Assembly (NCBI GenBank): GCA_025463925.1
Contig: JAODBK010000100.1
Location: 1 to 64,000, forward strand
Length of the DNA: 64,000 nt
Direction of reading: 5' to 3'
From: Acidimicrobiales bacterium
Lineage (GTDB): Bacteria; Actinomycetota; Acidimicrobiia; Acidimicrobiales; AC-14
The position numbers and the translations under genes were made by a program. Under the pieces are notes generated by a model. That model saw only the letters and a list, made by a program, of their open reading frames with translations. It was not told where the DNA came from and made no database searches. Shown piece after piece: positions 16,877 to 39,590 of this stretch (the stretch's first letter is position 1; the number at the start of each line of letters is the position of its first letter).

Positions 16877-16941
16877 TTCCTCCCAGCGAGGCAATGCTCG
16901 TACATCTCTCGAAGATTCTTGCGCTGAACGCTCCGCGCCGA

Positions 16942-20492: not shown

Positions 20493-20504
20493 GTAGCTAG
20501 CTAG

Positions 20505-20987
20505 CTAGTGGTCGACGCCGCCGGTGAGGTCGGTGAGGTGCTGGCGGAACGAGGTGACGGTCGCCTCGACGACCCGATCGTGACCCCACCGCAGTGCGCG
20601 CGGCGCCACCCGGGCTGCGAGCCGGATGGGGCGCTGCATCACCTCGATGCTGGAAGACACGTTGGCGCGCGTTCCCTTGCGCTCGGGCTCGAGGACGATC
20701 CGCGCCGTGCCCTCGAGATCGCCGTGGATGTCGGCATCGATGCTCTGAGGTCGGAGGCACTCGGCGAGCACGATGCGAACGCTCAAGCGGAATGGCAGAG
20801 GTGGAACCACGACGCCATGAAGGACGGAGCCGGTCTCGAGTCCCGTTCCTTCTACGCGGAAGTCCTTCAGCCAGCCCCACCAGCGTTCGTAGCGATCGAA
20901 ACGCTGCATCGCCGACCACACCTCATCGGGCGGGCGCGGGAGGCTGAAGTCGCCGCGGTATTCGATCACGTAGGGCGAGCGCGCCAC
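20505..20987 (-). CDS. SRPBCC / polyketide-cyclase-like protein
   Basis: A 160-residue START-like fold protein: FSLPRPPDEVWSAMQRFDRYERWWGWLKDFRVEGTGLETGSVLHGVV, the usual N-terminal pattern, then alternating strands and a long C-terminal helix. Such proteins bind hydrophobic ligands in a helix-grip cavity; no enzymatic residues can be assigned. It converges with the membrane protein gene; the 12-base gap is within a TAGCTAGCTAGCTAG run. Confidence 0.82.
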   Translation of the reverse strand: MARSPYVIEYRGDFSLPRPPDEVWSAMQRFDRYERWWGWLKDFRVEGTGLETGSVLHGVVVPPLPFRLSVRIVLAECLRPQSIDADIHGDLEGTARIVLEPERKGTRANVSSSIEVMQRPIRLAARVAPRALRWGHDRVVEATVTSFRQHLTDLTGGVDH

Positions 20988-21187
20988 GGGCTCAGGTTAC
21001 GTAGGCGGCGGGGATGAATCAGCGGTAGTGGCGCTCGAGGGGGTTGGCAAATCCGCCGTGGGCGCCGCTTGGGTCATCGAGCTGCACCTCGCGGAGCGCG
21101 TAAGTTGCGATGACGACCATAGGTTTGCAAGGTCGGGTGTTGTGGTCGAACGTGGTGAGTGTGCCAGCATGCTGACGAGGGGGCTCG

Positions 21188-21850
21188 ATGCCTGAGGGAA
21201 GCAACATCGGAAAGAGGCGCGTAGCTGCGCGTGCCGACTCGTCTTCCGCATACGGGAAACGACGTCTCGAACTGATCCACAAGGCGAAGTCCCTATTTCG
21301 CAGCAAGGGATATCACGCGACAAGTCTGAAGGACTTGGCCGAGCTCGTGGGCGGCGATCGAGCGTCGATCTACTACTACTTCAGCAGCAAACGTGATCTG
21401 TTCGAGGCGATTGTTGAAGAACCCGTCAGAGGTAATGTCACCACCGCAGAACACATCCGCGACAGCGATGTGAGTCCGCGACAGAAGCTCCGCGAGATCA
21501 TCATCGTGCTGATGAAGGTCTACGACGAGAACTACCCCGACTTCTTTGTCTTTCTACAAGAAGACCCCGCGCGCCTGACCGATGGGGACACGGCTTGGAC
21601 AAAGAAGATGACGGAGTGGAGCCGTCGGTACTACCGGGCCGTGCAGGACATCATCAATGAAGGCTTGGAAACGGGCGAGTTTCGGTCGAACTTGTCCGCA
21701 CGGCTTCTCGCCCACGGCATTCTTGGCACGATCAACTGGAGTCACCGCTGGTACAAGCCAGGACTCGGTACCTCTGCGGAGGACATCGGTGCTGGCTTCG
21801 CGGACATGATCGTGAACGGTCTTGCGGCACCAGCGAAACGATCGCGATAA
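21188..21850 (+). CDS. TetR family regulator of the 21-37 kb catabolic cluster
   Basis: The 220-residue TetR/AcrR repressor has a basic N-terminal arm, the HTH SLKDLAELVGGDRASIYYYF at about residues 46-65 and a C-terminal ligand domain ending in GTINWSHRWYKPG, reminiscent of KstR2-like regulators that sense CoA thioesters. It is the only regulator in the cluster, and an 18-bp palindrome recurs in front of the cluster's transcription units, so I infer it binds those sites. No copy is evident in front of its own gene; one lies 20 bases after its stop. ATG 21188 is the first start before the arm. Confidence 0.9.
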   Translation: MPEGSNIGKRRVAARADSSSAYGKRRLELIHKAKSLFRSKGYHATSLKDLAELVGGDRASIYYYFSSKRDLFEAIVEEPVRGNVTTAEHIRDSDVSPRQKLREIIIVLMKVYDENYPDFFVFLQEDPARLTDGDTAWTKKMTEWSRRYYRAVQDIINEGLETGEFRSNLSARLLAHGILGTINWSHRWYKPGLGTSAEDIGAGFADMIVNGLAAPAKRSR

Positions 21851-21869
21851 CTCCGTCCACCAGGAGCCG

Positions 21870-21887
21870 GTCAACTACTCTGTTGAC
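21870..21887. promoter_or_regulatory. TetR-type operator site 1
   Basis: GTCAAC-TACTCT-GTTGAC, both arms perfect, 25 bases before GTG 21913. Confidence 0.75.
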
Positions 21888-21912
21888 AAGATGCGCCGCA
21901 TTGAGCCATGCT

Positions 21913-22299
21913 GTGCACGTGGGTAGCACGGAGTCCTCGCCACGAGCACCCGTTCCTGGCCAACCGCCCGGCACGTCAGCTCTCATCATCGACCGCCGCA
22001 GCAATCGCCTCGCTCGGGCACTCGCCGCCCTCGGCGTAGAGGCCGGTGACCGTGTGGCGGTGGCGTGCTGCGACGACCACATGATCGACCGGGACGTCGC
22101 TCGCGCCGCGATCGCGAAGGCCGGGGCTGTGGCGGTCAGTGTCCACGGCCGTGCCGTCCGTGCGGTACTGGCGTGCGCCGAGGGCTTGGAGTGGTGGGAG
22201 CAGACCGGCGCGCGGGCCCTCGTCATCGCCGACGCTCCCGGCACGGTCTGGTGGAAGGCAGTCGAGCTCCGCCAACCCGCGACGCCGCTCGTCGCCTGA
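21913..22299 (+). CDS. Stand-alone fragment-like protein resembling an AMP-ligase N-terminus
   Basis: A 128-residue frame (GTG 21913; GTG 21919 also possible). The segment SNRLARALAALGVEAGDRVAVACCDDH and AAIAKAGAVAVSV match the first domain of acyl-CoA synthetases (typically ALxxLGVxxGDRVAVxxxN and LKAGAVxVPV). The protein stops after ALVIADAPGTVWWKAVELR, without ATP- or CoA-binding motifs. It may be a decayed ligase or a small protein that kept only this fold. The perfect operator just upstream argues that it is still expressed with the regulon. Confidence 0.6.
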   Translation: MHVGSTESSPRAPVPGQPPGTSALIIDRRSNRLARALAALGVEAGDRVAVACCDDHMIDRDVARAAIAKAGAVAVSVHGRAVRAVLACAEGLEWWEQTGARALVIADAPGTVWWKAVELRQPATPLVA

Positions 22300-22365
22300 C
22301 CGGTACACCGACATCGCTCATCGGTTGACGACGGTTGACACTCCTCTGGGTGCAACTTACACTCG

Positions 22366-22383
22366 GTCAACACAGGTGTAGAC
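22366..22383. promoter_or_regulatory. TetR-type operator site 2
   Basis: GTCAAC-ACAGGT-GTAGAC, upstream of the permease gene; two extra GTTGAC half-sites lie at 22324 and 22334. Confidence 0.6.
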
Positions 22384-22506
22384 GACCGAAGCTTGCAAAC
22401 TCCGGGCGAATGTTGCACCCGAGATCGGCAGGGTTTCCCCACGGATCTTGTAGGTCGCAGTGGACGATGAGTGGTCATAGACGCCCTTTCGCGTTGCACC
22501 GCCAAT

Positions 22507-23649
22507 ATGAAGATCGAAGCGCTGGCAGAAACGGGACCCAGGGTGGCGTCTGACACACGAGAGGCAAGCGCGGTCCCTGCCGAGCGAACTGGCGGCAGTG
22601 CGGTTCAAGGGAGCGATGGCGCCCGTTCCGGGGTCCGCGCTTGGACGGGGAAGGTACGGCGGGCGTCACACATCGAACAGGTTGGCGCGGTGTACCTTCT
22701 CGTCGCCATCGGCGTCATTTTCAGTGTGTGGAAGCCGGCCGTTTTCCCTCGATTGACGACCGTCCAGTCAATTCTCAACTCGAACGCAACGGTCGCTCTC
22801 CTCGCGCTGAGTCTCGTCATTCCCCTTGCCGCTGGTGTGTTCGACCTGTCGGTCGGCACCGTCATGGCCCTCACAGGGGTCCTGGCTGCAGAGCTGGTTG
22901 TGGGTCATGGGCTCCCGGTCAGTGTGGCGCTGTTCGCCGGGCTACTCGTGGGTCTCGCGGCCGGCGCCTTCAACGCGGCCATCGTCGTCGGGATCGGCAT
23001 CGAGTCGTTTATCGGAACGCTCGGCACGAGCTCGGTAATGGGCGCGATCATTCTGCTGATCAGTAACAACGAGAGCATCAGGAATGAGCACCTGAGCTCC
23101 ACGCTCCAAGATCTCGCGACACGAAATGTTGGCGGCATCCAGCTTCCGGTGTTCATTGTCGTGGCCGTGGCCGTAGTGATGTGGTACTTCCTCGAGCACA
23201 CGGTCTCGGGCCGCCGGCTCTACGCCATCGGTTTCAACGTCGAGGCTGCTCGGCTCTCTGGCATCCATACCAAGAAGCTGAGGGCTGGCGCCCTACTGAC
23301 ATCCGGGTTCCTTGCTGGCTTGGCGGGGCTGATTCTCATGGCGCAGACGGGCTCAGGTGCGCCGACGTCGGGTCCGCCATACCTGCTCGATGCCTTTGCG
23401 GCGGTGTTCTTGGGCGCTACGCAATTCCGGAATGGGCGGTTCAACACGTCCGGAACGCTGCTCGCGGTTGTGGTGCTGGGCACGGGGACTACCGGGCTAA
23501 CAATTGCCGGAGCGCGTACCTGGACTCTGAACCTGTTCATCGGAGTGGTGCTCGTGGTCGCGCTCGCACTCACCAAACTGGAAGTACGGCGCACGGCCGC
23601 ACCCATTGTTCAGGGCGACGCCATTGGCGACGAGCCCTTGCAGCACTGA
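22507..23649 (+). CDS. ABC transporter permease, ribose/sugar (RbsC) type
   Basis: The product (380 residues from ATG 22507; GTG 22471 would add 12) has a long polar N-terminus and about nine membrane spans. RbsC-type signatures are visible: LALSLVIPLAAGVFDLSVGTVMALTG, NAAIVVGIGIESFIGTLGT, YAIGFNVEAARLSGI (coupling loop) and AFAAVFLGATQF. It forms the channel of an importer with the binding protein that follows on + and the ATPase encoded at 32.8 kb on -. The substrate need not be a sugar; in catabolic clusters this type also imports other polar acids. Confidence 0.9.
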   Translation: MKIEALAETGPRVASDTREASAVPAERTGGSAVQGSDGARSGVRAWTGKVRRASHIEQVGAVYLLVAIGVIFSVWKPAVFPRLTTVQSILNSNATVALLALSLVIPLAAGVFDLSVGTVMALTGVLAAELVVGHGLPVSVALFAGLLVGLAAGAFNAAIVVGIGIESFIGTLGTSSVMGAIILLISNNESIRNEHLSSTLQDLATRNVGGIQLPVFIVVAVAVVMWYFLEHTVSGRRLYAIGFNVEAARLSGIHTKKLRAGALLTSGFLAGLAGLILMAQTGSGAPTSGPPYLLDAFAAVFLGATQFRNGRFNTSGTLLAVVVLGTGTTGLTIAGARTWTLNLFIGVVLVVALALTKLEVRRTAAPIVQGDAIGDEPLQH

Positions 23650-23762
23650 GGATTCCAGCGCTCGCAAGAAGTCAACATCAGCGCCGGCAAGCGGATGCGG
23701 GACCTCTCGGCGCGAACGCCAGCGGCCTGATCACTGACCGTTGTGCAATTCAACGCATGTTT

Positions 23763-23780
23763 GTAAACGCACTAGTTGAC
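23763..23780. promoter_or_regulatory. TetR-type operator site 3
   Basis: GTAAAC-GCACTA-GTTGAC, 45 bases upstream of site 4. Confidence 0.6.
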
Positions 23781-23807
23781 GGAAGTTCAGCCGGCGTGTA
23801 GCTTCAC

Positions 23808-23825
23808 GGCAACACCTACGTTGAC
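23808..23825. promoter_or_regulatory. TetR-type operator site 4
   Basis: GGCAAC-ACCTAC-GTTGAC, ending 15 bases before the binding-protein start, where bound repressor would block the ribosome-site/promoter region. Confidence 0.65.
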
Positions 23826-23840
23826 GGGGGACTTGTGGAG

Positions 23841-25070
23841 ATGAAGCGTCAGCTAGTCGGGGGTCGGCCGCGCCGTTACCCTTCCCATTCGCAGAGCGGT
23901 GGCGCTGTGCGCTCGATAGCGATCATGCTCGCGGCGGTGATCGTGCTGGCGTCTCTGGCGGCGTGCTCGTCCTCCAGCAGCACCAAAGCGACGACATCAG
24001 CAACAACGCAGAGCTCAGACGGGCTGTCGGCGGCAGGCAGTGCTGGACTCGCGAAGGCGAAAGCGGACCTCGAGGGGTGGCAGCGGGAGCCGACCAGCAT
24101 CGAGCTCACGACGCCGATTGGGAAGCCGATTCCCACCGGCAAGAAGATAAGCGCCGTCTTCGCTGCGAATGGATCAGCCAACTTGCTCTCGGACCCCCTG
24201 AAAGCAGCGGGCAAGGCCTTGGGCTGGGACGTCAAGGTCTCAGAGACACAATTCACTCCAGAGGCGATCCAAAGCAATTTCGCCCAGGCGGTGCGCGACA
24301 AGCCTGACGCCTTCGTTTACGCGGGATTCCCCGGCGCTACGGTTTCGCAGTCGCTCAGCGCCTTCGCAGCGGCGAAGACGCCGGTGGTGGCTGAGACAGT
24401 TGCCGAGACCACGGACGCTTCGAAGAACTACCTCGTCTTGCCCTCTCCGGACGTTTACGCCTTGGACGGGCAGATGTTGGCCGCATCGATCACCGTCGCG
24501 ACGGGCGGCAAGGGCAAACTCATGCTTGTTACCGTCCCTGCGTTTGAGATCTATGCGCCGGTGGTGGCAGCAGTCAATTCGAATCTGAAGAGCTACTGCC
24601 CCGATTGCGCTCTCGCCCAATACGACATGCCCGCCGAGTCGATCGGCAAAGATTCCGCTACTCGTATTACCAACTACATCCAAGGGCATCCAGGAATCAA
24701 CGGTCTCGTCGACGTGTTCGGGGCGTTCTCGATCGGCCTGCCCACCGCGCTACAAGGTGCGGGGATCGACCCGAAGTCGTTGAAGACCGTTGCGCTCTAT
24801 CCGCCGACTCAAGTCATTGGGATGGTCAAGCAGGGAGCGGTCTTCGCGGCCATCCCCTTCCCATTCGATGAATACATGTTCACCGCGGTCGACGCGATTG
24901 CGCGGTTGTTGGTCGGCGAGTCCTTTTCACCAGATGTCACTACCGCAGCCGCGAAGGCGCCAGCGGTCGTATGGACGCAGGCGAATGCTCCCGCCAATAC
25001 GGATACAACGGCCGGGCTTCCGATCATCAAGGACTATGAGGCCAAGTTCCGCGCCCTCTGGGGGAAGTAA
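23841..25070 (+). CDS. Substrate-binding lipoprotein of the sugar-type ABC importer
   Basis: The 409-residue precursor has a twin-basic N-terminus, a hydrophobic core (AIMLAAVIVLASLAAC) with lipobox LAAC and a Ser/Thr-rich linker, so the mature protein is membrane-anchored outside the cell. The mature part has the Peripla_BP_4 pattern of RbsB/ChvE-type proteins (KKISAVFAANGSANLLSDPLKAAGKALGWDVKV; NGLVDVFGAFSIGLPTALQGAG). ATG 23841 is favoured over GTG 23835. It captures the cluster's unknown substrate for the permease encoded just upstream. Confidence 0.9.
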   Translation: MKRQLVGGRPRRYPSHSQSGGAVRSIAIMLAAVIVLASLAACSSSSSTKATTSATTQSSDGLSAAGSAGLAKAKADLEGWQREPTSIELTTPIGKPIPTGKKISAVFAANGSANLLSDPLKAAGKALGWDVKVSETQFTPEAIQSNFAQAVRDKPDAFVYAGFPGATVSQSLSAFAAAKTPVVAETVAETTDASKNYLVLPSPDVYALDGQMLAASITVATGGKGKLMLVTVPAFEIYAPVVAAVNSNLKSYCPDCALAQYDMPAESIGKDSATRITNYIQGHPGINGLVDVFGAFSIGLPTALQGAGIDPKSLKTVALYPPTQVIGMVKQGAVFAAIPFPFDEYMFTAVDAIARLLVGESFSPDVTTAAAKAPAVVWTQANAPANTDTTAGLPIIKDYEAKFRALWGK

Positions 25071-25157
25071 GAGCATGGTCCCAGTTCCGGCCTTGATGAA
25101 CATGTCAGTCCTCGGCCGGGATGAACGAGCCCGATCGCGACTCACGAGGGAGACGCT

Positions 25158-26081
25158 ATGACGCTAGATCTCGTTCCGGTGACGGCCACCTTTGGCGTCG
25201 AGGTGTCAGGACTGGACCTGCGATCCGCGAACGCTGCCGACTTCGAGGCGCTCCGCGATGCCTTGCTGCAGCACAGGCTGCTGCTGTTCCGGAGCCCTTC
25301 GCTCGACAGTGAGGAGCAGGTTCGTGTGATGGAGTCGCTGCGCGTAGGCGAACCTCTACACGAGACGGCGCAGGCTCCTGCGTGGGGCTGGGTGACCAAC
25401 ACGGGAGAGCTGCCCGACGACGGCGGCATCGTTGACGCGAGCCCTACCGAACTTCTCTGGCACGCCGACTACGAATTCACTGAATTCGGCCCGATCCAAG
25501 CGATCTCTCTGTATGGCCATGAGGTTCCCGAGGCGAGCTATCCCACGATGCTGTCCAACAACGTCGAGGCCGTGAAGAGGTTGCCGGCAGATCTCAGGGA
25601 GAAGGTGCGTACGCTCAAGGTCCTCAAGGCGAAGGAGCACACCGGGCCCGGGGAGGGCTACGACGATTTCGCCAACCACCGAAACCGAGTCAGCGCGCCC
25701 GCACAAGAAGGAAACCTCTTCCACGGCTCGGAACACGACATCATTGAGACGCACCCAATCACCGGCGAGCCGTGGCTCACCGTCAGCCAGATGATGACGA
25801 GCCACGTCGTCGGATGGACCGATGAGGAGAGTGACGTTCTGTTCGCCGAGTTGGACGAGATCGCGTACGACCCAAGCAACGTCTACGAACATGACTGGCG
25901 GGTCGGCGATCTCATCGTGTGGGACAACATCGCGCTGCGGCATCGGCGGGGAACGACTCCAAAGGGCAGCACCCCAGGCGGTCGTCGGGTCCTTCGTAGG
26001 GTTGCGGTCGACTCGATCGACATGCTCACGCGCTTTCCGGTCGCGAGGCCCGCGGAAAGCCTGCAAGTCGTTGACCGTTAG
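25158..26081 (+). CDS. TauD/TfdA-family Fe(II)/2-oxoglutarate dioxygenase
   Basis: The 307-residue enzyme begins GVEVSGLDLRSANAADFEALRDAL and LLLFRSP, typical of TauD. The iron triad is readable: His and Asp in LWHADYEF (about residues 99-101) and the distal His in NIALRHRRG, followed by the 2-oxoglutarate Arg region (GGRRVLRRV). Such enzymes hydroxylate a carbon next to a sulfonate, ether, ester or amine and often split the molecule. GAGGGAG precedes ATG 25158. It sits directly upstream of an amidohydrolase in the same operon, so it may act early on the substrate. Confidence 0.9.
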   Translation: MTLDLVPVTATFGVEVSGLDLRSANAADFEALRDALLQHRLLLFRSPSLDSEEQVRVMESLRVGEPLHETAQAPAWGWVTNTGELPDDGGIVDASPTELLWHADYEFTEFGPIQAISLYGHEVPEASYPTMLSNNVEAVKRLPADLREKVRTLKVLKAKEHTGPGEGYDDFANHRNRVSAPAQEGNLFHGSEHDIIETHPITGEPWLTVSQMMTSHVVGWTDEESDVLFAELDEIAYDPSNVYEHDWRVGDLIVWDNIALRHRRGTTPKGSTPGGRRVLRRVAVDSIDMLTRFPVARPAESLQVVDR

Positions 26082-26102
26082 GTGCTGAAAGGTAGCGGCG
26101 AC

Positions 26103-27326
26103 GTGACGCTACCGCGAATCATCTCTGTTGATGATCATGTCGTCGAGCCGCCGGATCTCTGGATGGCGCGGATGGCGAGCAAGCACCGAGACCGCGCTCC
26201 GCACGTAGAACGGGTCCACGGTCACCAAGTGCATCGCGGCGCGGCTGAGGTCGAGCTCGTCGAAAGCGACGACGCAGATGCCACGTGGGCGGACGTGTGG
26301 GTGTACGACGATCTGCGCTGGCCCCTGATCGTGGGTTACGTCAACGTTGGTGATCTACGAGACCGGAACCTCACGGGCCACGCAATGGTGACGTACGACG
26401 ACATCCTGCCCGGCTGCTTTGAGCAAGGCTCTCGGCTGAAGGACATGGATCTGAACAACACCGAAGCGCAGCTTTGCTTTCCTACGGTTCCGCGGTTCTG
26501 TGGGCAACTGTTCCTTGAGCGAAAGGACAAGGAGTTTGCCCATCTGTGCTTGAAGACCTACAACGACTGGGTCATTGATGACTGGTGTGGCGGTGCAGGT
26601 CACGGCCGGCTGATTCCCAACATCGTTGTACCGCTCTGGGATGCGAATCTCGCAGCAACCGAGATCCACCGGTGCGCCGACAAGGGGACGCATGCGGTCG
26701 CGTTCTCTGAAGCACCTGTCGAGCTGGGTCTCCCCAGCATCCACTCGGGGTGGTGGGACCCGTTCCTTCTCGCCTGCGAACAGACCGAAACAGTCATCAA
26801 CATGCACGTCGGATCGTCCTCGAAGATGCCCACGACGGCACCGGACGCGCCGTTCAGCATCTGCGCCGCTCTCATTTTCGAGAACGTGCTGCGTTCGATG
26901 GTGGACTGGCTGATGTCGGGTGTCCTCGCGCGCTACCCGCGGTTGAGGATCGCCTTCAGTGAAGGACAAGTTGGATGGATGCCGTTCGTCCTACAACGAC
27001 TGGACTCATTGTGGGAGCGCGGCGAGATGTACGACCACGACATGCGCGTCCGTCTGCCCGATCCGCCAAGCTCCTACGTCCCAGGGCGGGTCTATGGCTG
27101 CGTCTTTGATGACGTGGTCGGGTTGCAGTCTCGTGATGTGATCGGGATGGGTCAGATCATGTTCGAGACTGACTATCCACATTCGGACTCGACGTTCCCG
27201 CATTCTGCTGACACCGCGCAAGCACTTGCGTCGGCCGCGGGTTTGAGCGATCACGAGATGTGGCAGTTCCTGCGCGGGAACGCGATCGAGTGCTATCGCC
27301 TCGAGAGCGTCGGGATCACTCAGTAG
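26103..27326 (+). CDS. Amidohydrolase-2 family metal-dependent hydrolase/decarboxylase
   Basis: A 407-residue TIM-barrel enzyme of the COG2159 type (ACMSD, resorcylate decarboxylase and LigY relatives). The N-terminus reads ISVDDHVVEPPDLW, so the metal motif is D-x-H-x-x-E rather than H-x-H. Later come NMHVGSSS (His), SEGQVGWMPFVLQRLDSLWE and FETDYPHSDSTFP (catalytic Asp). GTG 26103 is favoured; GTG 26082 directly abuts the previous stop. Three paralogues lie in the second cluster. It may hydrolyse a C-C or C-N bond or decarboxylate; sequence does not say which. Confidence 0.85.
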   Translation: MTLPRIISVDDHVVEPPDLWMARMASKHRDRAPHVERVHGHQVHRGAAEVELVESDDADATWADVWVYDDLRWPLIVGYVNVGDLRDRNLTGHAMVTYDDILPGCFEQGSRLKDMDLNNTEAQLCFPTVPRFCGQLFLERKDKEFAHLCLKTYNDWVIDDWCGGAGHGRLIPNIVVPLWDANLAATEIHRCADKGTHAVAFSEAPVELGLPSIHSGWWDPFLLACEQTETVINMHVGSSSKMPTTAPDAPFSICAALIFENVLRSMVDWLMSGVLARYPRLRIAFSEGQVGWMPFVLQRLDSLWERGEMYDHDMRVRLPDPPSSYVPGRVYGCVFDDVVGLQSRDVIGMGQIMFETDYPHSDSTFPHSADTAQALASAAGLSDHEMWQFLRGNAIECYRLESVGITQ

Positions 27327-27356
27327 GCATGGCCCGGAGATCCAAGGGTTCAGCGA

Positions 27357-28151
27357 TTGACCTCATTTAGCGGCTACGACTCGATCGAATTCCGTCGAGA
27401 AGCGGACGTGCTCATCGTTACGCTGCACAACCCGCGGAACTCGGTGAACGCGATCGACGACCGCATGCACCGCGAGCTCGCGCGCCTGTTTGGGGAACTC
27501 GGCGAGGAAAGGGCTGCCCGAGCCATCTTGTTGCGCGGCTCCGAGCAGGCCTTCAGCGCGGGTGGGGATCTGTCATGGATTCGTGACATGCAACCTGAGG
27601 ATCTCGACAGTCTCCGGCACATTGGGAAACAAATCGTCTGGAATCTTCTGGACGTCGAGATTCCGATCGTCGCGGCTGTGAACGGCCCGGCAATAGGCTT
27701 TGGCGCGACTCTCGCGCTCCTGTCGGACGCTCTCATCATGAGCGAGTCCGCACGGCTCGGGGATCCCCACGTGCGTCTTGGACTGGTCGCAGGAGACGGC
27801 GGAGCAGTCGTGTGGCCGCTACTCGTCGGACCGATGGTCGCGAAGCGGTACCTATTGACCGGTGACCTGATGACGGCCGCGGAGGCGCAGCGAATGGGCC
27901 TTGCGACTGAGGTTGTGCCGGATGGTGAGATGGACGCTCGTTCCCTGAGTTTCGCAAGGCGCTTGGCCTCCGGCGCGCCGCTCGCGATCCGGTACACCAA
28001 GCTCGCGATCAACCAACTTGTCAAGAATTCGATGACGATTGCTTTTGACTACTCCACCAGCCTCGAGGTCGCGACATTCGTGACGGCTGATCACAAGGAA
28101 GCCGTGCAAGCGTTCATGCAGAAGCGAGAACCGCGCTTCCGAGGCGCCTAA
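27357..28151 (+). CDS. Enoyl-CoA hydratase/isomerase family protein
   Basis: A 264-residue crotonase-fold protein. FSAGGDLSWIRDM (first oxyanion-hole segment) and VAAVNGPAIGFGATLALLSDALIMSESARLGDPHVRLGLVAGDGGA (second oxyanion glycine and the active-site loop) are present. The usual catalytic Glu of hydratases (GxxE at the first position) is not obvious, so isomerase, hydrolase or lyase chemistry is possible. TTG 27357 with AAGGG upstream is the best start. The C-terminal trimerisation helix region is complete. Confidence 0.88.
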   Translation: MTSFSGYDSIEFRREADVLIVTLHNPRNSVNAIDDRMHRELARLFGELGEERAARAILLRGSEQAFSAGGDLSWIRDMQPEDLDSLRHIGKQIVWNLLDVEIPIVAAVNGPAIGFGATLALLSDALIMSESARLGDPHVRLGLVAGDGGAVVWPLLVGPMVAKRYLLTGDLMTAAEAQRMGLATEVVPDGEMDARSLSFARRLASGAPLAIRYTKLAINQLVKNSMTIAFDYSTSLEVATFVTADHKEAVQAFMQKREPRFRGA

Positions 28152-28220
28152 CGGTGAAAACACCGCGCAACTGCCCTCAGCTACGCACCGGCGACGACAA
28201 CGGCGAGGAGATCCGCTTAC

Positions 28221-28730
28221 ATGTTCGGTGAGAAGACCCAGGCGCTCCCGATCCCTCTGGATCCGGAGAGCACTATCTACTGTCCAGCTGGAGTGCTGAC
28301 GTTTGCGGTTGAGCGCCGGCACATCAACCAAGCGATCGCGGATGAGGCATTTGCTGACGATCCGGTTGCTCGGGAGCACTCGGATGCAAAATATGTTGAG
28401 TACGAGCGCGAGAACGGGGTTCCGCTCGACGTGCGGTTCAAGTCGCTGCACGTACTCGGGTCAGACGGCCTTGAGTACCTTCGCTTCGACATCATCGCGG
28501 AGTATCCGCATTACCACTACGTCACGCCGGCGGAGCCGTGCGACGTCCTGTGGATGTTCGATTCCGTAGCCAATGGCGACTTCGCCGAATGGGTGTTTGG
28601 ACGGCTGCGCACTCAGTTGCGAGACATGTTGACCGCAGCCTCCGCTCCCCGCGAATCGTTGAATTTCGATCAAGCGGTGATTGAAGACGTCCTGCATGAA
28701 GTGGAAGCCGAAGTGCTTTCTTCGGTGTAG
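28221..28730 (+). CDS. Conserved hypothetical protein (169 aa)
   Basis: A soluble acidic protein, MFGEKTQALPIPLDPESTIYC then PAGVLTFAVERRHINQAIAD and EYLRFDIIAEYPHYHYVTPAEPCDVLWMFDSVANGDFAEWVFGRL. The His/Tyr-rich YPHYHYV core and the Cys residues might bind a metal. I recall similar uncharacterised proteins beside actinobacterial catabolic genes but cannot name a function. GAGGAG lies ten bases before ATG 28221. It ends the binding-protein operon, and the 235 bases after it contain two operators and the promoter of the next unit. Confidence 0.75.
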   Translation: MFGEKTQALPIPLDPESTIYCPAGVLTFAVERRHINQAIADEAFADDPVAREHSDAKYVEYERENGVPLDVRFKSLHVLGSDGLEYLRFDIIAEYPHYHYVTPAEPCDVLWMFDSVANGDFAEWVFGRLRTQLRDMLTAASAPRESLNFDQAVIEDVLHEVEAEVLSSV

Positions 28731-28886
28731 CGGGACTTCGACACGACCTCGGCTCGCGAACCGGACGACCTCGACACCGGGGCCGAGGACATGGCCCGCT
28801 CAGCCCCGTCGTCCGGTCCCCCCTGGCCGGTGCGGCGGGGCTGTTGCGCGTTCAGCTGCCGCTGAGCTACGTGCGGTGCGCGGCCC

Positions 28887-28904
28887 GTTAACAACGTAGT
28901 TGAC
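28887..28904. promoter_or_regulatory. TetR-type operator site 5
   Basis: GTTAAC-AACGTA-GTTGAC, 50 bases upstream of site 6. Confidence 0.6.
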
Positions 28905-28936
28905 AACCGCGCTTGGCCAGGCTGTAATGGGTTGGG

Positions 28937-28954
28937 TCCAACACTACTGTTGAC
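28937..28954. promoter_or_regulatory. TetR-type operator site 6
   Basis: TCCAAC-ACTACT-GTTGAC, ending 11 bases before ATG 28966 and touching its ribosome site. Confidence 0.65.
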
Positions 28955-28965
28955 GGAGAGAGACG

Positions 28966-30123
28966 ATGGTGAAGTTCCACCTGGTTCAGTACGGCGCCGT
29001 GGGTCGACCGCACGAGATCGAAGCCGGTATGGCGGGCCGTCGGGTCGACCTCTACCAGCGTTACTTGGAGGAGATCAGGTACTACGCCTCATACGCCGAT
29101 GAGCTGGGGTTCGCGGGCTACAGCCACAACGAGCATCACCTTCAGCTCGAGGGCTTCGAGGAATCGAATCACCCCGGCATGCTGAGCCTGTTCATCGGGC
29201 AACATTCCAAGAAGCTCACGGTCGGGACGCTCGGGTATGTGCTGCCTACGCACAACCCCGTGCGCGTTGCGGAAGAGGTCGCGACCCTCGATCACATGCT
29301 GAAAGGCCGCCTGCTCGTGGCCTTCCTCCGCGGCTATCAGGAACGCTGGACCAATACGTATGCGGCCGTCCAGGGCGTGACAGCGACAAGCCCAGTGCTC
29401 TCGAAAGCACATGACGAGCGTGACGACATCAACCGAGAGCTCTTCGAAGAGTCGTTCGACGTCGTCATGAAGGCCCTGACGTCAACCACCTTCAGTCACC
29501 GCGGGAAGTACTGGACATTCCCGCCGGACAACATCGTGGTCAAGCACCCGGCATACGCCGCGTGGGGGCAAGGGGTTCGCGATGACGGACTCGTGGAGGA
29601 GATCGGCATCGCGCCTGCCCCGTACCAAGACCCCCACCCGAAGATTTATGGTGGGTTCACCGGCAGCATGCGCACGACCAAGTTCTTCGCGCGGAAGGGC
29701 GCGAAGGTCATCGTTCCAGCCAACAACCTTGACTTCTGCGAGACCCTTTGGAATGTCTATATCGAGGAGGCTCGCGCTCAGGGAAGAGAGGTGGCGCGAG
29801 AAGACGCTGCTGCGTGGGGCGGTGCCCTCATCGTTCGGGAGACGCGTGAGCAAGCGGAAGAGGACGCCAAGGCCTTCGAGTTCATCACGAAGAAGTGGTT
29901 CGAGCCCATGGGCCAGAAGCCGACCGAAGCGATCATCGGTACTCCCGACGACGTGAGTGAGAAGATTGAGGAGGCGTACGAGCGCCTCGGCTTCAACGAA
30001 TGCTGGCTCATCTTCATGCAGGGACTACTCCCGCCCGAAATCGTCGGTGAGCACCTGCGTCTGTTCGCGGAAAAGGTGATGCCGCGCTTCAGCGAGCGAA
30101 ACGCCGACGGTGTGTACGTGTGA
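28966..30123 (+). CDS. LLM-class flavin-dependent monooxygenase (luciferase-like)
   Basis: The 385-residue bacterial-luciferase-family protein reads EIRYYASYADELGFAGYSHNEHHLQLEGF, LTVGTLGYVLPTHNPVRVAEEVATLDHMLKGRLLVAFLRGYQERW and PKIYGGFTGSMRTTKFFARKGAKVIVPANN. The EHH motif and the long C-terminal segment are family features. Such enzymes oxygenate ketones, sulfur compounds or hydrocarbons with reduced FMN from a separate reductase, and no reductase gene is seen here. GGAGAGAG precedes ATG 28966. It is followed 12 bases later by a MaoC-like gene. Confidence 0.9.
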   Translation: MVKFHLVQYGAVGRPHEIEAGMAGRRVDLYQRYLEEIRYYASYADELGFAGYSHNEHHLQLEGFEESNHPGMLSLFIGQHSKKLTVGTLGYVLPTHNPVRVAEEVATLDHMLKGRLLVAFLRGYQERWTNTYAAVQGVTATSPVLSKAHDERDDINRELFEESFDVVMKALTSTTFSHRGKYWTFPPDNIVVKHPAYAAWGQGVRDDGLVEEIGIAPAPYQDPHPKIYGGFTGSMRTTKFFARKGAKVIVPANNLDFCETLWNVYIEEARAQGREVAREDAAAWGGALIVRETREQAEEDAKAFEFITKKWFEPMGQKPTEAIIGTPDDVSEKIEEAYERLGFNECWLIFMQGLLPPEIVGEHLRLFAEKVMPRFSERNADGVYV

Positions 30124-30135
30124 CGGAGTAGAAGC

Positions 30136-30603
30136 GTGACGGAGGAACGAGCCGCCGCGTCGTTGGTTGGAACAACGGTCGTCAGCTCTCGGCGAACTTT
30201 GTCTGAGACGGAGTTCTCGGTCCTGTTGTCACTGACGTGGGCACTTCACCCGTTGCACTTGGACACCGAGTACGCGCAGGCACGAGGCTTTCGCGATCGG
30301 ATAATGGACGGACCGCTGCTGCTGGCGCTGGCCATCGGGCTTGAGGTGTTCGCCGGTGTGGGTCGCCTCATCGATGAGTCCGGCATCCGGCTGATCGCTC
30401 TGAAGGAGATCGAGCACGTGCGATTTCTGGCGCCCGTCTATCCACAGGACGCTATCTTCACAAGCACTGAATTTCTCGACACCCAACCAGCCACACGGCC
30501 GGGTCGATGGAACATGCACGTGAGCACACAGCTCTACAAAGGGGTGGACGAATTGGTAATGCAGGCGTCCCGCACCTTCGCGTTCGAGCTCGACCAGAAG
30601 TAG
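30136..30603 (+). CDS. MaoC-like hot-dog hydratase/thioesterase
   Basis: A 155-residue single hot-dog protein starting at GTG 30136 behind GGAG. The motif LHPLHLDTEYAQARGFRDRIMDGPLLLALAIGL corresponds to the MaoC hydratase motif (D/H-x(5)-H-x-D...F), with RVRFLAPVYPQD-type strands near residue 95. It probably hydrates an enoyl-CoA made from the pathway intermediate, or acts as a thioesterase. It lies between the monooxygenase and the CoA ligase. Confidence 0.85.
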   Translation: MTEERAAASLVGTTVVSSRRTLSETEFSVLLSLTWALHPLHLDTEYAQARGFRDRIMDGPLLLALAIGLEVFAGVGRLIDESGIRLIALKEIEHVRFLAPVYPQDAIFTSTEFLDTQPATRPGRWNMHVSTQLYKGVDELVMQASRTFAFELDQK

Positions 30604-30674
30604 TGCCACCTGTGCTGGACGGACCGAAACGGCAGACGTGGGGGGACGTCCCGATTGCCGAAAGTGTTGACCTC

Positions 30675-32258
30675 ATGACGGCCGACACGACGCCCGTGTT
30701 GCAGCGGACGCTCAGGGACGTCCTCGAGAAGGCCGTCAAAGATCGCTCCGATCAGCCGGCGATCCTTTCGCCCGACGAGTCGTACACGTACGGCCAACTC
30801 TACGGCGACTGCCTGCGTATCGGGAACGGCTTCCGTGGGCTGGGACTCCATCGGCACGAGCCGGTTCTTCTGATGCTCGACAATCATTGTGATTTCGTCC
30901 GTGCCTGGATCGCGCTCAACCTCTTTGGCGGCGTCGAGGTGCCCGTCAACACCGCGTACAAGGGCGCAGTTCTTGAGCATCTGGTCCGTGACTCCGGCGC
31001 GCGCATGCTGGTCGTCGAGGCAAAGTACCTAGAGCGATTCGAAGACATCTTCCGCCAGTTGGATGCCGAACTTCGGGTTGTCGTGCGCGGTGACTCGGCC
31101 ACACCCACGGTGACTCGCGGCTCGATTACGAACTTCGAGGAGCTGGCAGATCACGACGAAGGGTCGCCGGTCGCCTTGGCACCGTGGGACCCGATGGGCA
31201 TTCTGTACACATCGGGAACAACCGGGCCAGCCAAAGGTGTCGTGGCCTCCCATGCCTACGCACACAGCTTCGCACCGAATTACATCGCAGCGTCCGGCCG
31301 AATCGCGACCGCGCTGCCGCTGTTCCACATCGGAGGGCAGTGGACCGGGGTCTACGCCGCGCTGCGCGTCGGCGGCAGCGTCGCGATACTGCCTGGCTTC
31401 CATGCGAGCACGTTCTGGCAAGAAGCGACTTCGTTGGAGTGCACGCAAACCCTGCTCGTCGGTGCCATGGCGCGATTCCTCATGAATAGCCCGGCCGCGC
31501 CGGACGACCGTTCGCACTCAGTCAGGCATATCAATATGTGCCCGGTCATCTCTGACGTCGCCGAGTTCGCGGAACGCTTCGGTGTGTCGGTCTGCGCGAC
31601 ATATGGCCTGACGGAGGGTTCCACACCAATGCTCACCCCGTACGGGCTCGCCGCTCCGCAATTTGCGGGCTGGATTCGCGAGGACTTCGAAGCAAGGATC
31701 ACGGACGAAAACGACATCGAGTTGCCGGTCGGTCAAGTCGGGGAGATCGTGCTCCGCGCAAGAGACCCCTGGGCGGTGATGTCTGAGTATCACGGCCTAC
31801 CTGACAAGAGCGCCGATGCGTTTCGCAACCTCTGGCTGCACACCGGCGATCTTGGTTACCGCGACGACCAGGGGCGTTACTTCTTCGTGGACAGAAAAGA
31901 CGACGCCATCCGCGTCCGGGGCGAAAACGTGTCCTCGTACGAAGTCGAGTCGGTCGTCGACGCGCATCCCGACGTGTCTGCAAGCGTTGCGGTTGCCGTG
32001 AAAAGCGAGAACACCGAAGATGACATCAAGGTCGTAGTCGTGCTTCACGAGAATGCGCCGCTCCGGCCCGAAGACCTGACGACCTACCTGATCGACCGGC
32101 TGCCCTACTTCATGGTCCCGCGCTACATCGAGTTCGTTGATGAACTACCGAGGACACCAACCGAGAAGATCAGGCGGGATCAGCTCCGACGGACCGGCGT
32201 GTCGAGCACTTCCTGGGACCGCGTGGCCGCCGGGATCGAGGTCAAGCGCCCTCGCTGA
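30675..32258 (+). CDS. Acyl-CoA synthetase (CaiC-like AMP-binding ligase)
   Basis: The product (527 residues from ATG 30675; GTG 30603 would overlap the MaoC stop and add 24) is an ANL adenylating enzyme. P-loop-like YTSGTTGPAKGVV, ATYGLTEGSTPM, WLHTGDLGYRDDQGRYFFVDRKDDAIRVRGENVSSYEVE and the catalytic lysine in PRTPTEKIRR are all visible. The family activates carboxylic acids to CoA thioesters; resemblance to CaiC is from the VNTAYKG and GGQWTG segments. It probably charges the imported acid or an intermediate. Confidence 0.9.
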   Translation: MTADTTPVLQRTLRDVLEKAVKDRSDQPAILSPDESYTYGQLYGDCLRIGNGFRGLGLHRHEPVLLMLDNHCDFVRAWIALNLFGGVEVPVNTAYKGAVLEHLVRDSGARMLVVEAKYLERFEDIFRQLDAELRVVVRGDSATPTVTRGSITNFEELADHDEGSPVALAPWDPMGILYTSGTTGPAKGVVASHAYAHSFAPNYIAASGRIATALPLFHIGGQWTGVYAALRVGGSVAILPGFHASTFWQEATSLECTQTLLVGAMARFLMNSPAAPDDRSHSVRHINMCPVISDVAEFAERFGVSVCATYGLTEGSTPMLTPYGLAAPQFAGWIREDFEARITDENDIELPVGQVGEIVLRARDPWAVMSEYHGLPDKSADAFRNLWLHTGDLGYRDDQGRYFFVDRKDDAIRVRGENVSSYEVESVVDAHPDVSASVAVAVKSENTEDDIKVVVVLHENAPLRPEDLTTYLIDRLPYFMVPRYIEFVDELPRTPTEKIRRDQLRRTGVSSTSWDRVAAGIEVKRPR

Positions 32259-32287
32259 CGCCGACGACAACTATCCGAGGAGTGCGA

Positions 32288-32749
32288 ATGTCAGAGGACA
32301 GCCTTGAGGCGATCGTTGACTCGCTGGAGTCAAGCCTGGAGATCGAGCAGATCACGTATTACTTCGCACACGGGATCGATAAGCGCGATGAAGAAAAGTT
32401 CCTGGGTATCTGGACCGAAGGTGCGACGTTGGTTAGCGACTCGCACACCTACCAGGGCCGGGACTCACTCCGGCAATACCTCATAGACATCTGGCGGGAG
32501 CTACCCGTCTCTCATCACTACGTCGCAAACAACGACGTCCGAATCTCCGGTGACACCGCCGAAGGAATCTGCGACCACGACGTCCTTGCGACCACCGCGG
32601 ATGGGGAAACAGTGATCCTGGCCGCTTCAGCGTTCGACACGTACCGCCGAGTAGGACGGACTTGGCGCATCGAACACCGCAGGATCGAGACTTGCCATCG
32701 GCTGGCGCTTCCCGGCGTCGAGCTGACGGGCAATCCGCGGCCTTGGTAG
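32288..32749 (+). CDS. NTF2-like/SnoaL protein, paralogue of 34416-34889
   Basis: A 153-residue cone-shaped-fold protein: EIEQITYYFAHGIDKRDEEKFLGIWTEGATLV, SHHYVANNDVRISGDTAEGICDHDVL, RVGRTWRIEHRRIE. GAGG lies just before ATG 32288. Its ordered motifs match the protein encoded at 34416-34889 (HYV-N, ISGD-A-GI-D-D), so the two are paralogues on either side of the ATPase gene. Similar proteins act as dehydratases, isomerases or ring-opening enzymes in aromatic and steroid pathways. Confidence 0.87.
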   Translation: MSEDSLEAIVDSLESSLEIEQITYYFAHGIDKRDEEKFLGIWTEGATLVSDSHTYQGRDSLRQYLIDIWRELPVSHHYVANNDVRISGDTAEGICDHDVLATTADGETVILAASAFDTYRRVGRTWRIEHRRIETCHRLALPGVELTGNPRPW

Positions 32750-32792
32750 CGGGCCCAGGCGGGTACGACGCCGCGTCGCGGTCGTGAGCACG

Positions 32793-34334
32793 TTAAGCCG
32801 TAACGCCTTCCGTTTCAGACAAGATGTCGTCGGCAGAGATGCTCGGCCGTCTCAACTCACAGCGAATTCGGCCCCTCTCCAGGACCAATACCCGATGACA
32901 GAGCGACACAAGGTCCTCTACGTCAGACGAGCAGATGAGAATGCTGAGTCCGGCCGCGGCCTTTTCCTCGAGAAGCGCATAGAGCGCGCGACGCGCAGCA
33001 ACATCTACGCCGGCGGTCGGCTCGGCTAGCACGAGAATCCTCGGATTTGTGTAAAGGCACCGCGCGAGCAACACGCGCTGTCTGTTCCCGCCACTCAGCG
33101 ACGTGATCGGTCTTTCAGCGGTCTCAGCGTCGATTCCGATGTCATGTAGCCAACGTCTCGCCTCCCTCGTCTCGCGGTGCTTGGCGAGCATCCCCCCGCG
33201 GCCTCGAAGAGTAGGCAGTGCACTCAGGGTGAGGTTCTCGGTCACGGAAAACTCAGCGATGAGCCCCTCGCGGTCGCGCTCGGCGGGTACAAACGCTATG
33301 CCCAATTCCTCAGATGAGAGATTTTTCGGTCCTGGATCGACCTCCTTGCCGTTGACGCTCCAACGTCCAATGCAGCTCGACGGCGCCGCTCCGGCGAGGA
33401 CATAGGGGAGCTCCTCCCGGCCGGAGCCGACCAGCCCCGCCACGCCCAATATCTCGCCGCGCTGGAGGTGAAGGTCGATGCCCGAAAGGCTGCGGGACCG
33501 CAATCCGCGCACACGAAGCACCGCGGTCGGGTCGGTCGGCTCAGGACCTACGGCGTGAGGAGAATCCCGCACAGTCGAGAGGAACCGCCCTGCGATCAGG
33601 GCCACCAAGTCGCGAGCGGTGAACTCGCCAACGGCGCCGGATCCGACCAGGCGACCGTTCCGCAGAACTGCGACGTCATCGGCGATCTCGAACACCTCAT
33701 CCATGCGATGGGACACGTAGATGACAGCGTGTCCGCGGTCGCGTACTTCGCGTATGACCTGAAACAGCCTCGCGACCTCTCGGGATGGCAGGGCAGCCGT
33801 GGGTTCATCCAGTACCAGGATGCGCCGACCGTCGCCCCAATCCCACATCGCCCGTGCAATCGCGATGCACGTCTGTTCTACGGCGGAGGTTCCTGTGAGG
33901 GGCGCGCGCACATCGAGGCGAATGCCGAAACGTGCCAGCAACGCTTCGGTGTTCGCGATTTGGGTCCGCTGGAGGACTCTGCCGGTGCGAGACCTGTGGT
34001 AACCGGTCGTAAGCGCGACGTTGTCGACGACGCTCAGTTCACGGATCAGGCCAAGATCTTGGTGCACGAAACGAAGCCCGCGTGCCTTTGCGGACTCCGC
34101 TGATCCAAGGTCCAGGCTTTCTCCGTCTACCCAAGCGCGTGCGCCGTCATCGGGTTTGTAAAACCCTGCCAGTACACGGATCAGTGTCGACTTGCCGGAC
34201 CCGTTCGGGCCCAGCAGCGCCAGGACTCTTCCCCGGTTCACCGCAAGGTCGACGTTGTTCAACGCGACGGTGGCAGAGAAAGTCTTTGACAAGCTTGCGA
34301 TCTGCAGCGCAGGAACCACCTGGTCAGTCATCAT
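32793..34334 (-). CDS. Double-NBD sugar-type ABC transporter ATPase (RbsA-like)
   Basis: The 513-residue protein has two nucleotide-binding domains. Domain 1 has Walker A LLGPNGSGKST and Walker B ILVLDEPTAAL, but its signature is degenerate (TSAVEQTCIAIARA). Domain 2 has the degenerate Walker A (GLVGSGREEL) usual for RbsA proteins and a good signature LSGGNRQRVLLARCL, but its Walker B is VLAEPTAGVD, with Ala where Asp is expected. It should power the permease and binding protein encoded at 22.5-25.1 kb. It is the last gene of a leftward operon behind an NTF2-like gene and converges with the other NTF2-like gene. Confidence 0.9.
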   Translation of the reverse strand: MMTDQVVPALQIASLSKTFSATVALNNVDLAVNRGRVLALLGPNGSGKSTLIRVLAGFYKPDDGARAWVDGESLDLGSAESAKARGLRFVHQDLGLIRELSVVDNVALTTGYHRSRTGRVLQRTQIANTEALLARFGIRLDVRAPLTGTSAVEQTCIAIARAMWDWGDGRRILVLDEPTAALPSREVARLFQVIREVRDRGHAVIYVSHRMDEVFEIADDVAVLRNGRLVGSGAVGEFTARDLVALIAGRFLSTVRDSPHAVGPEPTDPTAVLRVRGLRSRSLSGIDLHLQRGEILGVAGLVGSGREELPYVLAGAAPSSCIGRWSVNGKEVDPGPKNLSSEELGIAFVPAERDREGLIAEFSVTENLTLSALPTLRGRGGMLAKHRETREARRWLHDIGIDAETAERPITSLSGGNRQRVLLARCLYTNPRILVLAEPTAGVDVAARRALYALLEEKAAAGLSILICSSDVEDLVSLCHRVLVLERGRIRCELRRPSISADDILSETEGVTA

Positions 34335-34415
34335 GTCGCCCGAGCGTGCCTTGTGGCTGCCATCCGTGCGCATCGGTCGTGACCTTCAGCCCGCCGTCGG
34401 CGGCTCCGTCGGCTT

Positions 34416-34889
34416 TCACGCGATCGTCGCCTCCGAACCGAGTCTCGCCGTATGAGCGGGCCACACCTTGCGCCGGGCGATGCGCCAGACGCCGTCCCGC
34501 CGCTCGTAGTCGTCGTATTGCGGTGAAGAGAAGAGAATCGCCAACCCGGTTGACGTCCCAAGCAAGATGTCTTGGTCGGTGATTCCCGTCGCTCGGTCGC
34601 CTGAAATGACGAACGTCGCATTCTTGACGTAGTGCCGGGTGATCGGCATGTCGACCCAGATATGCGTTGTCAAAAATGTTCGCAACGCGTCATGGCCGGC
34701 ATATTCGCCAATGCCCGGTCCGCAGTCGAATACGCCGTCTTCATGAAATGCCGAGAGGAAACGCGCCTCGTCACGTCGATCCATCCCGTACTGGACATCC
34801 CGGCAGAGCGACAAGAGGTGCCGGCGTGCGCTGAGGTCGTAGATTCGGGCCCGCAGTCGGGCTTGCGCATCTGACGACACTGAGGTCAT
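34416..34889 (-). CDS. NTF2-like/SnoaL protein, paralogue of 32288-32749
   Basis: A 157-residue protein with HLLSLCRDVQYGMDRRDEARFLSAFHEDGVFD, ITRHYVKNATFVISGDRATGITDQDIL and RRDGVWRIARRKV. GGAGGGAG precedes ATG 34889. It is the first gene of the leftward operon that continues with the ATPase, 81 bases apart, and an operator lies 32 bases upstream of its start. Its role is unknown; co-regulation and paralogy with 32288-32749 suggest the pair handle related intermediates or form a heteromer. Confidence 0.87.
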   Translation of the reverse strand: MTSVSSDAQARLRARIYDLSARRHLLSLCRDVQYGMDRRDEARFLSAFHEDGVFDCGPGIGEYAGHDALRTFLTTHIWVDMPITRHYVKNATFVISGDRATGITDQDILLGTSTGLAILFSSPQYDDYERRDGVWRIARRKVWPAHTARLGSEATIA

Positions 34890-34921
34890 CCGCCTGCTCC
34901 CTCCTGCGCAATGCAAGGTCT

Positions 34922-34939
34922 ATCTACACATGTGTTGAC
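34922..34939. promoter_or_regulatory. TetR-type operator site 7
   Basis: ATCTAC-ACATGT-GTTGAC, in front of the leftward NTF2-ATPase operon. Confidence 0.6.
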
Positions 34940-35000
34940 GACTGCTTGTGAGCGTACGTTTGACCCGTTGCCGGTGTCAAGCGAGCCCCGTGAGGAGTCT

Positions 35001-35018
35001 GTCAACACTCATGTTGCC
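35001..35018. promoter_or_regulatory. TetR-type operator site 8
   Basis: GTCAAC-ACTCAT-GTTGCC, about 170 bases before the rightward CoA ligase gene, in the divergent gap shared with site 7. Confidence 0.6.
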
Positions 35019-35188
35019 GACGGGCCCGTATTCCGTTAATGTGACCCTTGCCGGGACCAGAGGCGCGAGGACGCGGCCCGGCGTGGTTCGGTTACCTCGC
35101 AGTCGACATTCGACGCAGATCGTGGAGTTCGATGAGAGCTCAATCGCCTGGGGCTTCAGCCATACGCGCCGTCGGGAGTGGGTAGCTG

Positions 35189-36766: not shown

Positions 36767-36782
36767 CTGCCGCCATCAAACC

Positions 36783-36824
36783 CGGGCGCGTCACCGGCCC
36801 GTGCGCGGCTCCCGAACGCGCCCG
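36783..36824. terminator. Candidate bidirectional terminator hairpin
   Basis: CGGGCGCGT (36783-36791) pairs perfectly with ACGCGCCCG (36816-36824) around a 24-base loop, between the convergent ligase and MFS genes that close the two catabolic clusters. No U-tract. Confidence 0.4.
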
Positions 36825-36877
36825 CACTTGTCATAAGGGAGCCGGCTGATAGCAGCTGACACAAGCGCTGGAATGTG

Positions 36878-39578: not shown

Positions 39579-39590
39579 GGCTCGACGCCG

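What the first reader, a model, noticed from the sequence alone, without database searches (positions are those of the whole stretch)
21870..35018. Eight copies of an 18-bp palindrome define an unreported TetR regulon
GTCAAC-N6-GTTGAC occurs at 21870, 22366, 23763, 23808, 28887, 28937, 34922 and 35001, each in front of a transcription unit of the cluster on both strands; two promoters carry pairs 45 and 50 bases apart. I found no similar full site elsewhere in the window. The only regulator in the cluster is the TetR protein at 21188, which lacks a copy before its own gene, so a separate signal may control it.
Basis: partly seen in the sequence, partly recalled or inferred. Interest (0 to 1): 0.75.

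Follow-up and report, generated by a model that had tools for sequence, protein, structure and literature searches.

The report
TetR regulon with ancient shared operator
Eight short DNA palindromes in front of a catabolic gene cluster are almost certainly the binding sites of the neighbouring TetR-type repressor, and the same binding site is kept beside related repressors in at least two bacterial phyla, which makes this a local case of a widespread control switch that I did not find described.

Summary
Of the eight sites only 21870 is an exact GTCAAC-N6-GTTGAC; five have one mismatch and two have two. A weight matrix trained only on sites from other genomes still ranks exactly these eight as the top eight of the 64 kb window. 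Elsewhere in the genome, near-matches mostly lie inside genes. The link to the TetR protein, a guess in the first report, is strongly supported. Flanks of 79 TetR relatives (36-48% identical; Actinomycetota, Alpha-, Beta-, Gammaproteobacteria) hold 84 exact copies of the motif, against 0-1 for any other spacer or control half-site. The half-site GTTGAC doubles as the promoter -35 box: TAnnnT -10 boxes peak 17-18 bp downstream. In the window, operators sit over -35 and/or just after the -10. Best reading: the TetR dimer represses catabolic promoters by blocking RNA polymerase and is released by a pathway acyl-CoA or substrate (ligand inferred). The regulon is not unique to this cluster: it is one member of a subfamily with a frozen operator. 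No open-access paper found reports the motif. DNA binding itself is untested. New member of a known kind.

The parts
21188..21850 (+). TetR-family regulator (220 aa; TetR_N + TetR_C_24); recognition helix DRASIYYY; N-terminal arm SNIGKRRVAA
   Evidence: Pfam; alignment; model pLDDT 84.6; nearest folds PfmR, KstR2
21870..21887 (.). operator 1 GTCAACTACTCTGTTGAC (exact); right half overlaps candidate -35 TTGACA 21883-21888 (-10 CATGCT 21907-21912, weak)
   Evidence: 25.4 bits
21883..22299 (+). 138-aa frame holding only an N-terminal piece of an AMP-binding ligase; possible remnant or mini-ORF
22335..22363 (+). sigma-70-type promoter TTGACA-17-TACACT; a degenerate half operator (CGGTTGACGACGGTTGAC, 22322-22339) covers the -35
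22366..22383 (.). operator 2 GTCAACACAGGTGTAGAC, just after the -10, over the expected start of transcription
   Evidence: 21.3 bits
22471..23649 (+). sugar-type ABC transporter permease (BPD_transp_2)
23763..23780 (.). operator 3 GTAAACGCACTAGTTGAC, right half is the -35 (TTGACG 23776-23781, 17 bp, TAGCTT 23799-23804)
   Evidence: 20.0 bits
23808..23825 (.). operator 4 GGCAACACCTACGTTGAC, just after the -10
   Evidence: 16.9 bits
23835..25070 (+). periplasmic/lipoprotein substrate-binding protein (Peripla_BP_4)
25158..26081 (+). TauD/TfdA-type dioxygenase
26082..27326 (+). amidohydrolase (Amidohydro_2)
27357..28151 (+). enoyl-CoA hydratase/isomerase
28221..28730 (+). DUF7700 protein
28887..28904 (.). 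operator 5 GTTAACAACGTAGTTGAC, right half is the -35 of a near-consensus promoter TTGACA-17-TGTAAT (28900-28928)
   Evidence: 18.9 bits
28937..28954 (.). operator 6 TCCAACACTACTGTTGAC, downstream of the -10, ends 11 bp before the ATG at 28966
   Evidence: 11.7 bits
28966..30123 (+). luciferase-like monooxygenase; a 54% identical gene in a Sphingobium xenophagum plasmid cluster (L093) sits just behind an exact operator
30136..30603 (+). MaoC-like dehydratase (overlaps next frame)
30507..32258 (+). acyl-CoA ligase (AMP-binding)
32282..32749 (+). SnoaL-like protein
32793..34373 (-). ABC transporter ATPase with two ABC domains
34416..34916 (-). SnoaL-like protein
34922..34939 (.). operator 7 ATCTACACATGTGTTGAC, downstream of candidate minus-strand promoter (TTGACA 34980-34975, -10 TACGCT 34956-34951)
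   Evidence: 25.2 bits
35001..35018 (.). operator 8 GTCAACACTCATGTTGCC; could overlap a weak plus-strand promoter TTGCCG-17-TAATGT (35014-35042)
   Evidence: 21.9 bits
35189..36766 (+). acyl-CoA ligase (AMP-binding), last unit with an operator

Best explanation
The eight palindromes are operators of the TetR protein encoded at 21188-21850. A TetR dimer binds GTCAAC-N6-GTTGAC; because each half-site contains a -35 hexamer (TTGAC), and second operators sit just after the -10, bound repressor blocks RNA polymerase at the promoters of the transporter permease, the binding-protein/dioxygenase/amidohydrolase/hydratase operon, the monooxygenase/ligase operon and the divergent SnoaL-ABC ATPase / acyl-CoA ligase pair. 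An inducer, most likely a CoA thioester made by the cluster's ligases or the imported substrate, releases it. Shown: motif, positions, subfamily-wide conservation, promoter overlap. Inferred: binding, repression rather than activation, the identity of the ligand. The operator specificity is old: it belongs to a TetR_C_24 subfamily (N-terminal SxIGxRRxAA arm, recognition helix DR[AV][ST][LI]YYY) found in Actinomycetota and Pseudomonadota.
For: Sites real and non-random. 84 exact sites in 1.35 Mb of flanks of 79 TetR relatives, against 0-1 for spacers 0-5 and 7-12, and 0-1 for five control half-sites at spacer 6; 71 of 79 loci hold a site with <=1 mismatch (members listed). A matrix from other genomes picks the eight window sites as its top eight. 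75% of sites lie outside the interior of called ORFs, where 15% would be expected. TAnnnT is found at 8.0% and 5.7% of site-strands at spacer 17 and 18, against 0.9% background; window promoters fit. Only one close relative of this TetR subfamily in the genome (three TetR_C_24 proteins in all). Genes beside the sites in other genomes are catabolic: 19 of 105 FMO/Baeyer-Villiger-like, 11 acyl-CoA ligases, SDR, acyl-CoA dehydrogenases, luciferase-like monooxygenases. Nearest folds include KstR2, AibR with isovaleryl-CoA and FadR with stearoyl-CoA.
Against: No binding or expression data. Window sites are less perfect than those of many relatives (one exact of eight). The TetR gene lacks its own site, and 8 of the 79 loci lack a site with <=1 mismatch, some of them on short contigs. 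The CoA ligand is a guess by analogy of fold and gene content. The relatives were found by patterns that include the recognition helix, so conservation of that helix is partly selected for.
Confidence: 0.9

Rival explanations
1. The palindromes are operators of a different regulator encoded elsewhere; the neighbouring TetR is a bystander.
For: Half of relatives' TetR genes, and this one, lack a self-site; two other TetR_C_24 proteins exist in the genome, one 94 kb away on the same contig.
Against: The motif follows this TetR subfamily through unrelated gene clusters in at least two phyla, while four more distant TetR relatives on short loci lack it.
Confidence: 0.05
2. The sites are just -35 boxes (TTGACA) that happen to be mirrored; the shared half-site reflects sigma-70 promoters, not an operator.
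For: GTTGAC contains the -35 consensus and is followed by -10 boxes at 17-18 bp.
Against: The mirrored half and the exact 6-bp spacer are conserved (84 against 0-1 at other spacers); several sites sit after the -10 rather than at -35.
Confidence: 0.02
3. The TetR acts as an activator, or as a mixed activator/repressor, through the same operators.
For: Some TetR proteins activate (e.g. FasR, from general knowledge); operator 35001 lies upstream of a -35.
Against: Most window operators overlap -35 or the expected start of transcription, positions expected to block polymerase.
Confidence: 0.07

Closest known systems
KstR2 (Mycobacterium tuberculosis Rv3557c), repressor of the lower cholesterol pathway
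   Same: TetR fold with TM-score 0.87 by target, local catabolic regulon of CoA-dependent enzymes, palindromic operators in divergent promoters (PMC3068626)
   Different: Operator AnCAAGnnCTTGnT with a 2-bp centre instead of GTCAAC-N6-GTTGAC; recognition helix region GILSGSLYHHF against GGDRASIYYYF; 24% identity
PfmR (Thermus thermophilus), PDB 3vpr
   Same: Best fold match, second best sequence match in the PDB
   Different: Recognition helix region SKAALYHHF; its operator, from memory, is different and was not tested here
FadR of Bacillus and AibR (acyl-CoA-bound TetR repressors)
   Same: Fold, and acyl-CoA ligands solved in 3whc and 5k7h
   Different: About 20% identity; ligand for the window protein unknown
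EdcR (Caenibius tardaugens) and SRTF1 (Pimelobacter/Nocardioides simplex), TetR repressors of steroid catabolism
   Same: TetR regulators with palindromes at promoters of catabolic clusters in the same kinds of bacteria
   Different: EdcR motif is TnnCnnTACnAnTnGTAnnGnnA (PMC8700777); SRTF1's 22-bp palindrome is shown only in a figure, so identity with this motif was not tested

Membership tests
TetR family (TetR_N + TetR_C_24) | TetR_N helix-turn-helix and all-helical C-terminal ligand domain | tested here: met
   Pfam 55.7 and 73.6 bits, over both cut-offs; predicted fold matches TetR structures
TetR family repressor | Dimer binds a palindromic operator overlapping the promoter | tested here: inconclusive
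   Operator and its promoter overlap shown by sequence; binding not measured
GTCAAC-N6-GTTGAC TetR subfamily (defined here) | Operator with <=1 mismatch beside the regulator gene, and recognition helix DR[AV][ST][LI]YYY with N-terminal SxIGxRRxAA arm | tested here: met
KstR2 | Operator AnCAAGnnCTTGnT | tested here: not met
   CAAG-N2-CTTG occurs 25 times in the loci, fewer than a control palindrome (45), against 223 for CAAC-N6-GTTG
KstR2 | Recognition helix sequence shared with KstR2 | tested here: not met
   GILSGSLYHHF in KstR2 against GGDRASIYYYF
Acyl-CoA-responsive TetR regulators (FadR, AibR, KstR2) | Released from DNA by a CoA thioester | not testable with these tools
   Only fold similarity and gene context

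The most novel reading that the evidence does not exclude
An old TetR subfamily has kept one operator, fused with the -35 box, while its ligand domain and target pathways diversified, so that paralogues within one genome (e.g. two each in the Sphingopyxis plasmid, Tsuneonella and Patulibacter loci) share operator specificity and may cross-regulate. Residue 60 of the recognition helix would be a specificity switch: the subclade with Ala instead of Ser/Thr (L074, L085; three proteins) has lost the motif from its neighbourhood.
Probability: 0.35. Interest if true: 0.6.

Novelty: new member of a known kind. Interest (0 to 1): 0.45.

Why it matters
A reliable operator motif lets one predict targets for a large group of uncharacterised regulators of catabolic clusters (Baeyer-Villiger and luciferase-like monooxygenases, acyl-CoA ligases) in Actinomycetota and Pseudomonadota, and gives ready-made operator/promoter parts for biosensors. 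It also raises a testable question: how paralogous repressors with the same operator in one genome avoid cross-talk.

Tried and rejected
Searched the own genome for distant regulon members: of 18 other near-matches, 14 lie inside coding-like frames; of the other four, one lies inside an enoyl-CoA-hydratase-like frame at a contig end, one has no related genes beside it, and two (L105, L107) were not followed. Looked for a replacement palindrome in loci without the motif (L074, L085, L009, L010, L007, L008, L059): nothing convincing. Tested a fixed spacing between paired operators: spacings are spread widely, so 45/50 is not a rule. The luciferase-like monooxygenase homologues in other members of the order lack the motif in short flanks, so that enzyme is not always in the regulon. 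Plain searches of papers for the motif letters returned no relevant paper. First motif script timed out; two alignment calls failed on stop codons.

Full report
What is in the sequence. Only 21870 is an exact GTCAAC-N6-GTTGAC; 22366, 23763, 23808, 28887 and 35001 have one mismatch and 28937 and 34922 have two. At up to two mismatches the window holds 13 matches against 2.1 expected, and none of 100 shuffles reaches 13. In the whole 4.08 Mb genome 23 places have at most one mismatch, six of them in this 13 kb. The other places were taken out and checked: of 18 sites, 14 lie inside coding-like frames, one more inside an enoyl-CoA-hydratase-like frame at a contig end, one has no related genes beside it, and two were not followed. 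So the regulon looks local.

Link to the TetR protein. This was the weak point of the first report and was tested by phylogenetic footprinting. A 40% identical TetR in another family of the same order carries an exact site beside it, and two 41-44% relatives carry one-mismatch sites. A scan of 84,980 species genomes with an alignment of the TetR gave 79 loci, 36-48% identical, from Actinomycetota and Alpha-, Beta- and Gammaproteobacteria. Their flanks, 1.35 Mb in all, hold 84 exact and 183 up-to-one-mismatch sites with spacer 6. For every other spacer from 0 to 12 the exact count is 0 or 1; five control half-sites at spacer 6 give 0 or 1 exact. 71 of 79 loci have at least one site with one mismatch or none. 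75% of sites lie outside the interior of called ORFs, against 15% expected. More distant TetRs (L003, L004, L009, L010; 29-35% identity) have no such site in their short flanks.

Out-of-sample prediction. A matrix built from 183 sites of other genomes, the window left out, was run over the window. Its eight best scores are exactly the eight reported sites (25.4 to 11.7 bits). Shuffled windows give 0.34 positions of 10 bits or more; the window has 10, the extra two being 14365 and 24696. Nothing like the motif lies before the TetR gene itself (best -12 bits). Among relatives 40 of 79 TetR genes have a site (up to two mismatches) within 350 bp upstream, so autoregulation is common but not a rule.

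How it should work. The half-site GTTGAC contains TTGAC, the core of a -35 hexamer. Around 193 sites, taken in both directions, TAnnnT is found at 8.0% and 5.7% of strands with a spacer of 17 and 18, against a background of 0.9%; no other offset outside the operator itself comes near. The operator is thus built into the promoter. In the window: TTGACA-17-TGTAAT at 28900 starts in operator 28887 and operator 28937 follows the -10; TTGACG-17-TAGCTT at 23776 starts in operator 23763 and operator 23808 follows the -10; TTGACA-17-TACACT at 22335 has operator 22366 right after the -10, with only a degenerate half-copy over the -35; a minus-strand TTGACA-18-TACGCT at 34980 has operator 34922 after its -10; TTGACA at 21883 starts in operator 21870 with a poor -10. 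The 'pairs 45 and 50 apart' are therefore a -35 operator plus a start-site operator. In other genomes pair spacing is not fixed. Occlusion of RNA polymerase is the natural reading; it is inferred.

What it controls. The units behind the operators encode a sugar-type ABC permease, a binding protein, a TauD-type dioxygenase, an amidohydrolase, an enoyl-CoA hydratase, a DUF7700 protein, a luciferase-like monooxygenase, a MaoC dehydratase, two acyl-CoA ligases, two SnoaL proteins and an ABC ATPase. This is a catabolic cluster for an unidentified compound handled as CoA esters (inference from the families). Permease and ATPase relatives lie with the TetR in L012, L025, L067 and L084, and the monooxygenase (54%) in a Sphingobium xenophagum plasmid cluster, where it sits just behind an exact operator. 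Across 105 genes next to sites in other genomes, 19 match flavin monooxygenase (Baeyer-Villiger-like) profiles and 11 acyl-CoA ligases, then SDRs, acyl-CoA dehydrogenases and P450s.

The protein. It is a TetR_N + TetR_C_24 protein. Relatives share an N-terminal arm SxIGxRRxAA and a recognition helix DR[AV][ST][LI]YYY. The predicted model (pLDDT 84.6) puts a helix at residues 6-16 before the first HTH helix. Best fold matches are PfmR and KstR2, followed by DarR, AibR with isovaleryl-CoA and FadR with stearoyl-CoA. A CoA ester as ligand is plausible by analogy only. On the tree the motif is nearly universal in the clade. A subclade with Ala at position 60 (L074, L085; TDRAAIYYY) lacks it in 20-kb flanks while its sister group with Ser keeps it. 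With three proteins in two loci this is a lead, not a result.

Known or new. KstR2's operator AnCAAGnnCTTGnT (PMC3068626) and EdcR's (PMC8700777) are different. CAAG-N2-CTTG is not enriched in these loci. No open-access paper found prints the motif. Most subscription papers are not in the library, and SRTF1's palindrome is printed only in a figure (PMC7062782), so an earlier description cannot be excluded. It is a TetR regulon of the usual sort, new as a member, with an unusually widespread operator.

Limits. All evidence is sequence-based. The loci came from patterns that include the recognition helix, which inflates its apparent conservation but cannot create the motif in the flanks. Gene calls in the other genomes are crude.

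Noticed in passing
window 15695-16884: IS630-like DDE transposase (ORF 15785-16876) with imperfect 34-nt inverted repeats at both ends.
   Followed up: no
window 20000-40000: G+C drops to 0.61-0.64 (0.70-0.74 at the window's two ends), which suggests the catabolic cluster was acquired.
   Followed up: no
window 21883-22299: Frame with only an N-terminal stretch of an acyl-CoA ligase behind the only exact operator; a decayed gene is likely.
   Followed up: partly
L074, L085: TetR relatives with Ser60 replaced by Ala in the recognition helix lack the operator nearby; possible natural change of specificity.
   Followed up: partly
L091, L013, L014: Two TetR paralogues of the same operator clade lie within one locus, so they may compete for the same operators.
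   Followed up: no
own genome, contig C90 115557-115886 (-): Another TetR_C_24 regulator on the same contig outside the window.
   Followed up: no
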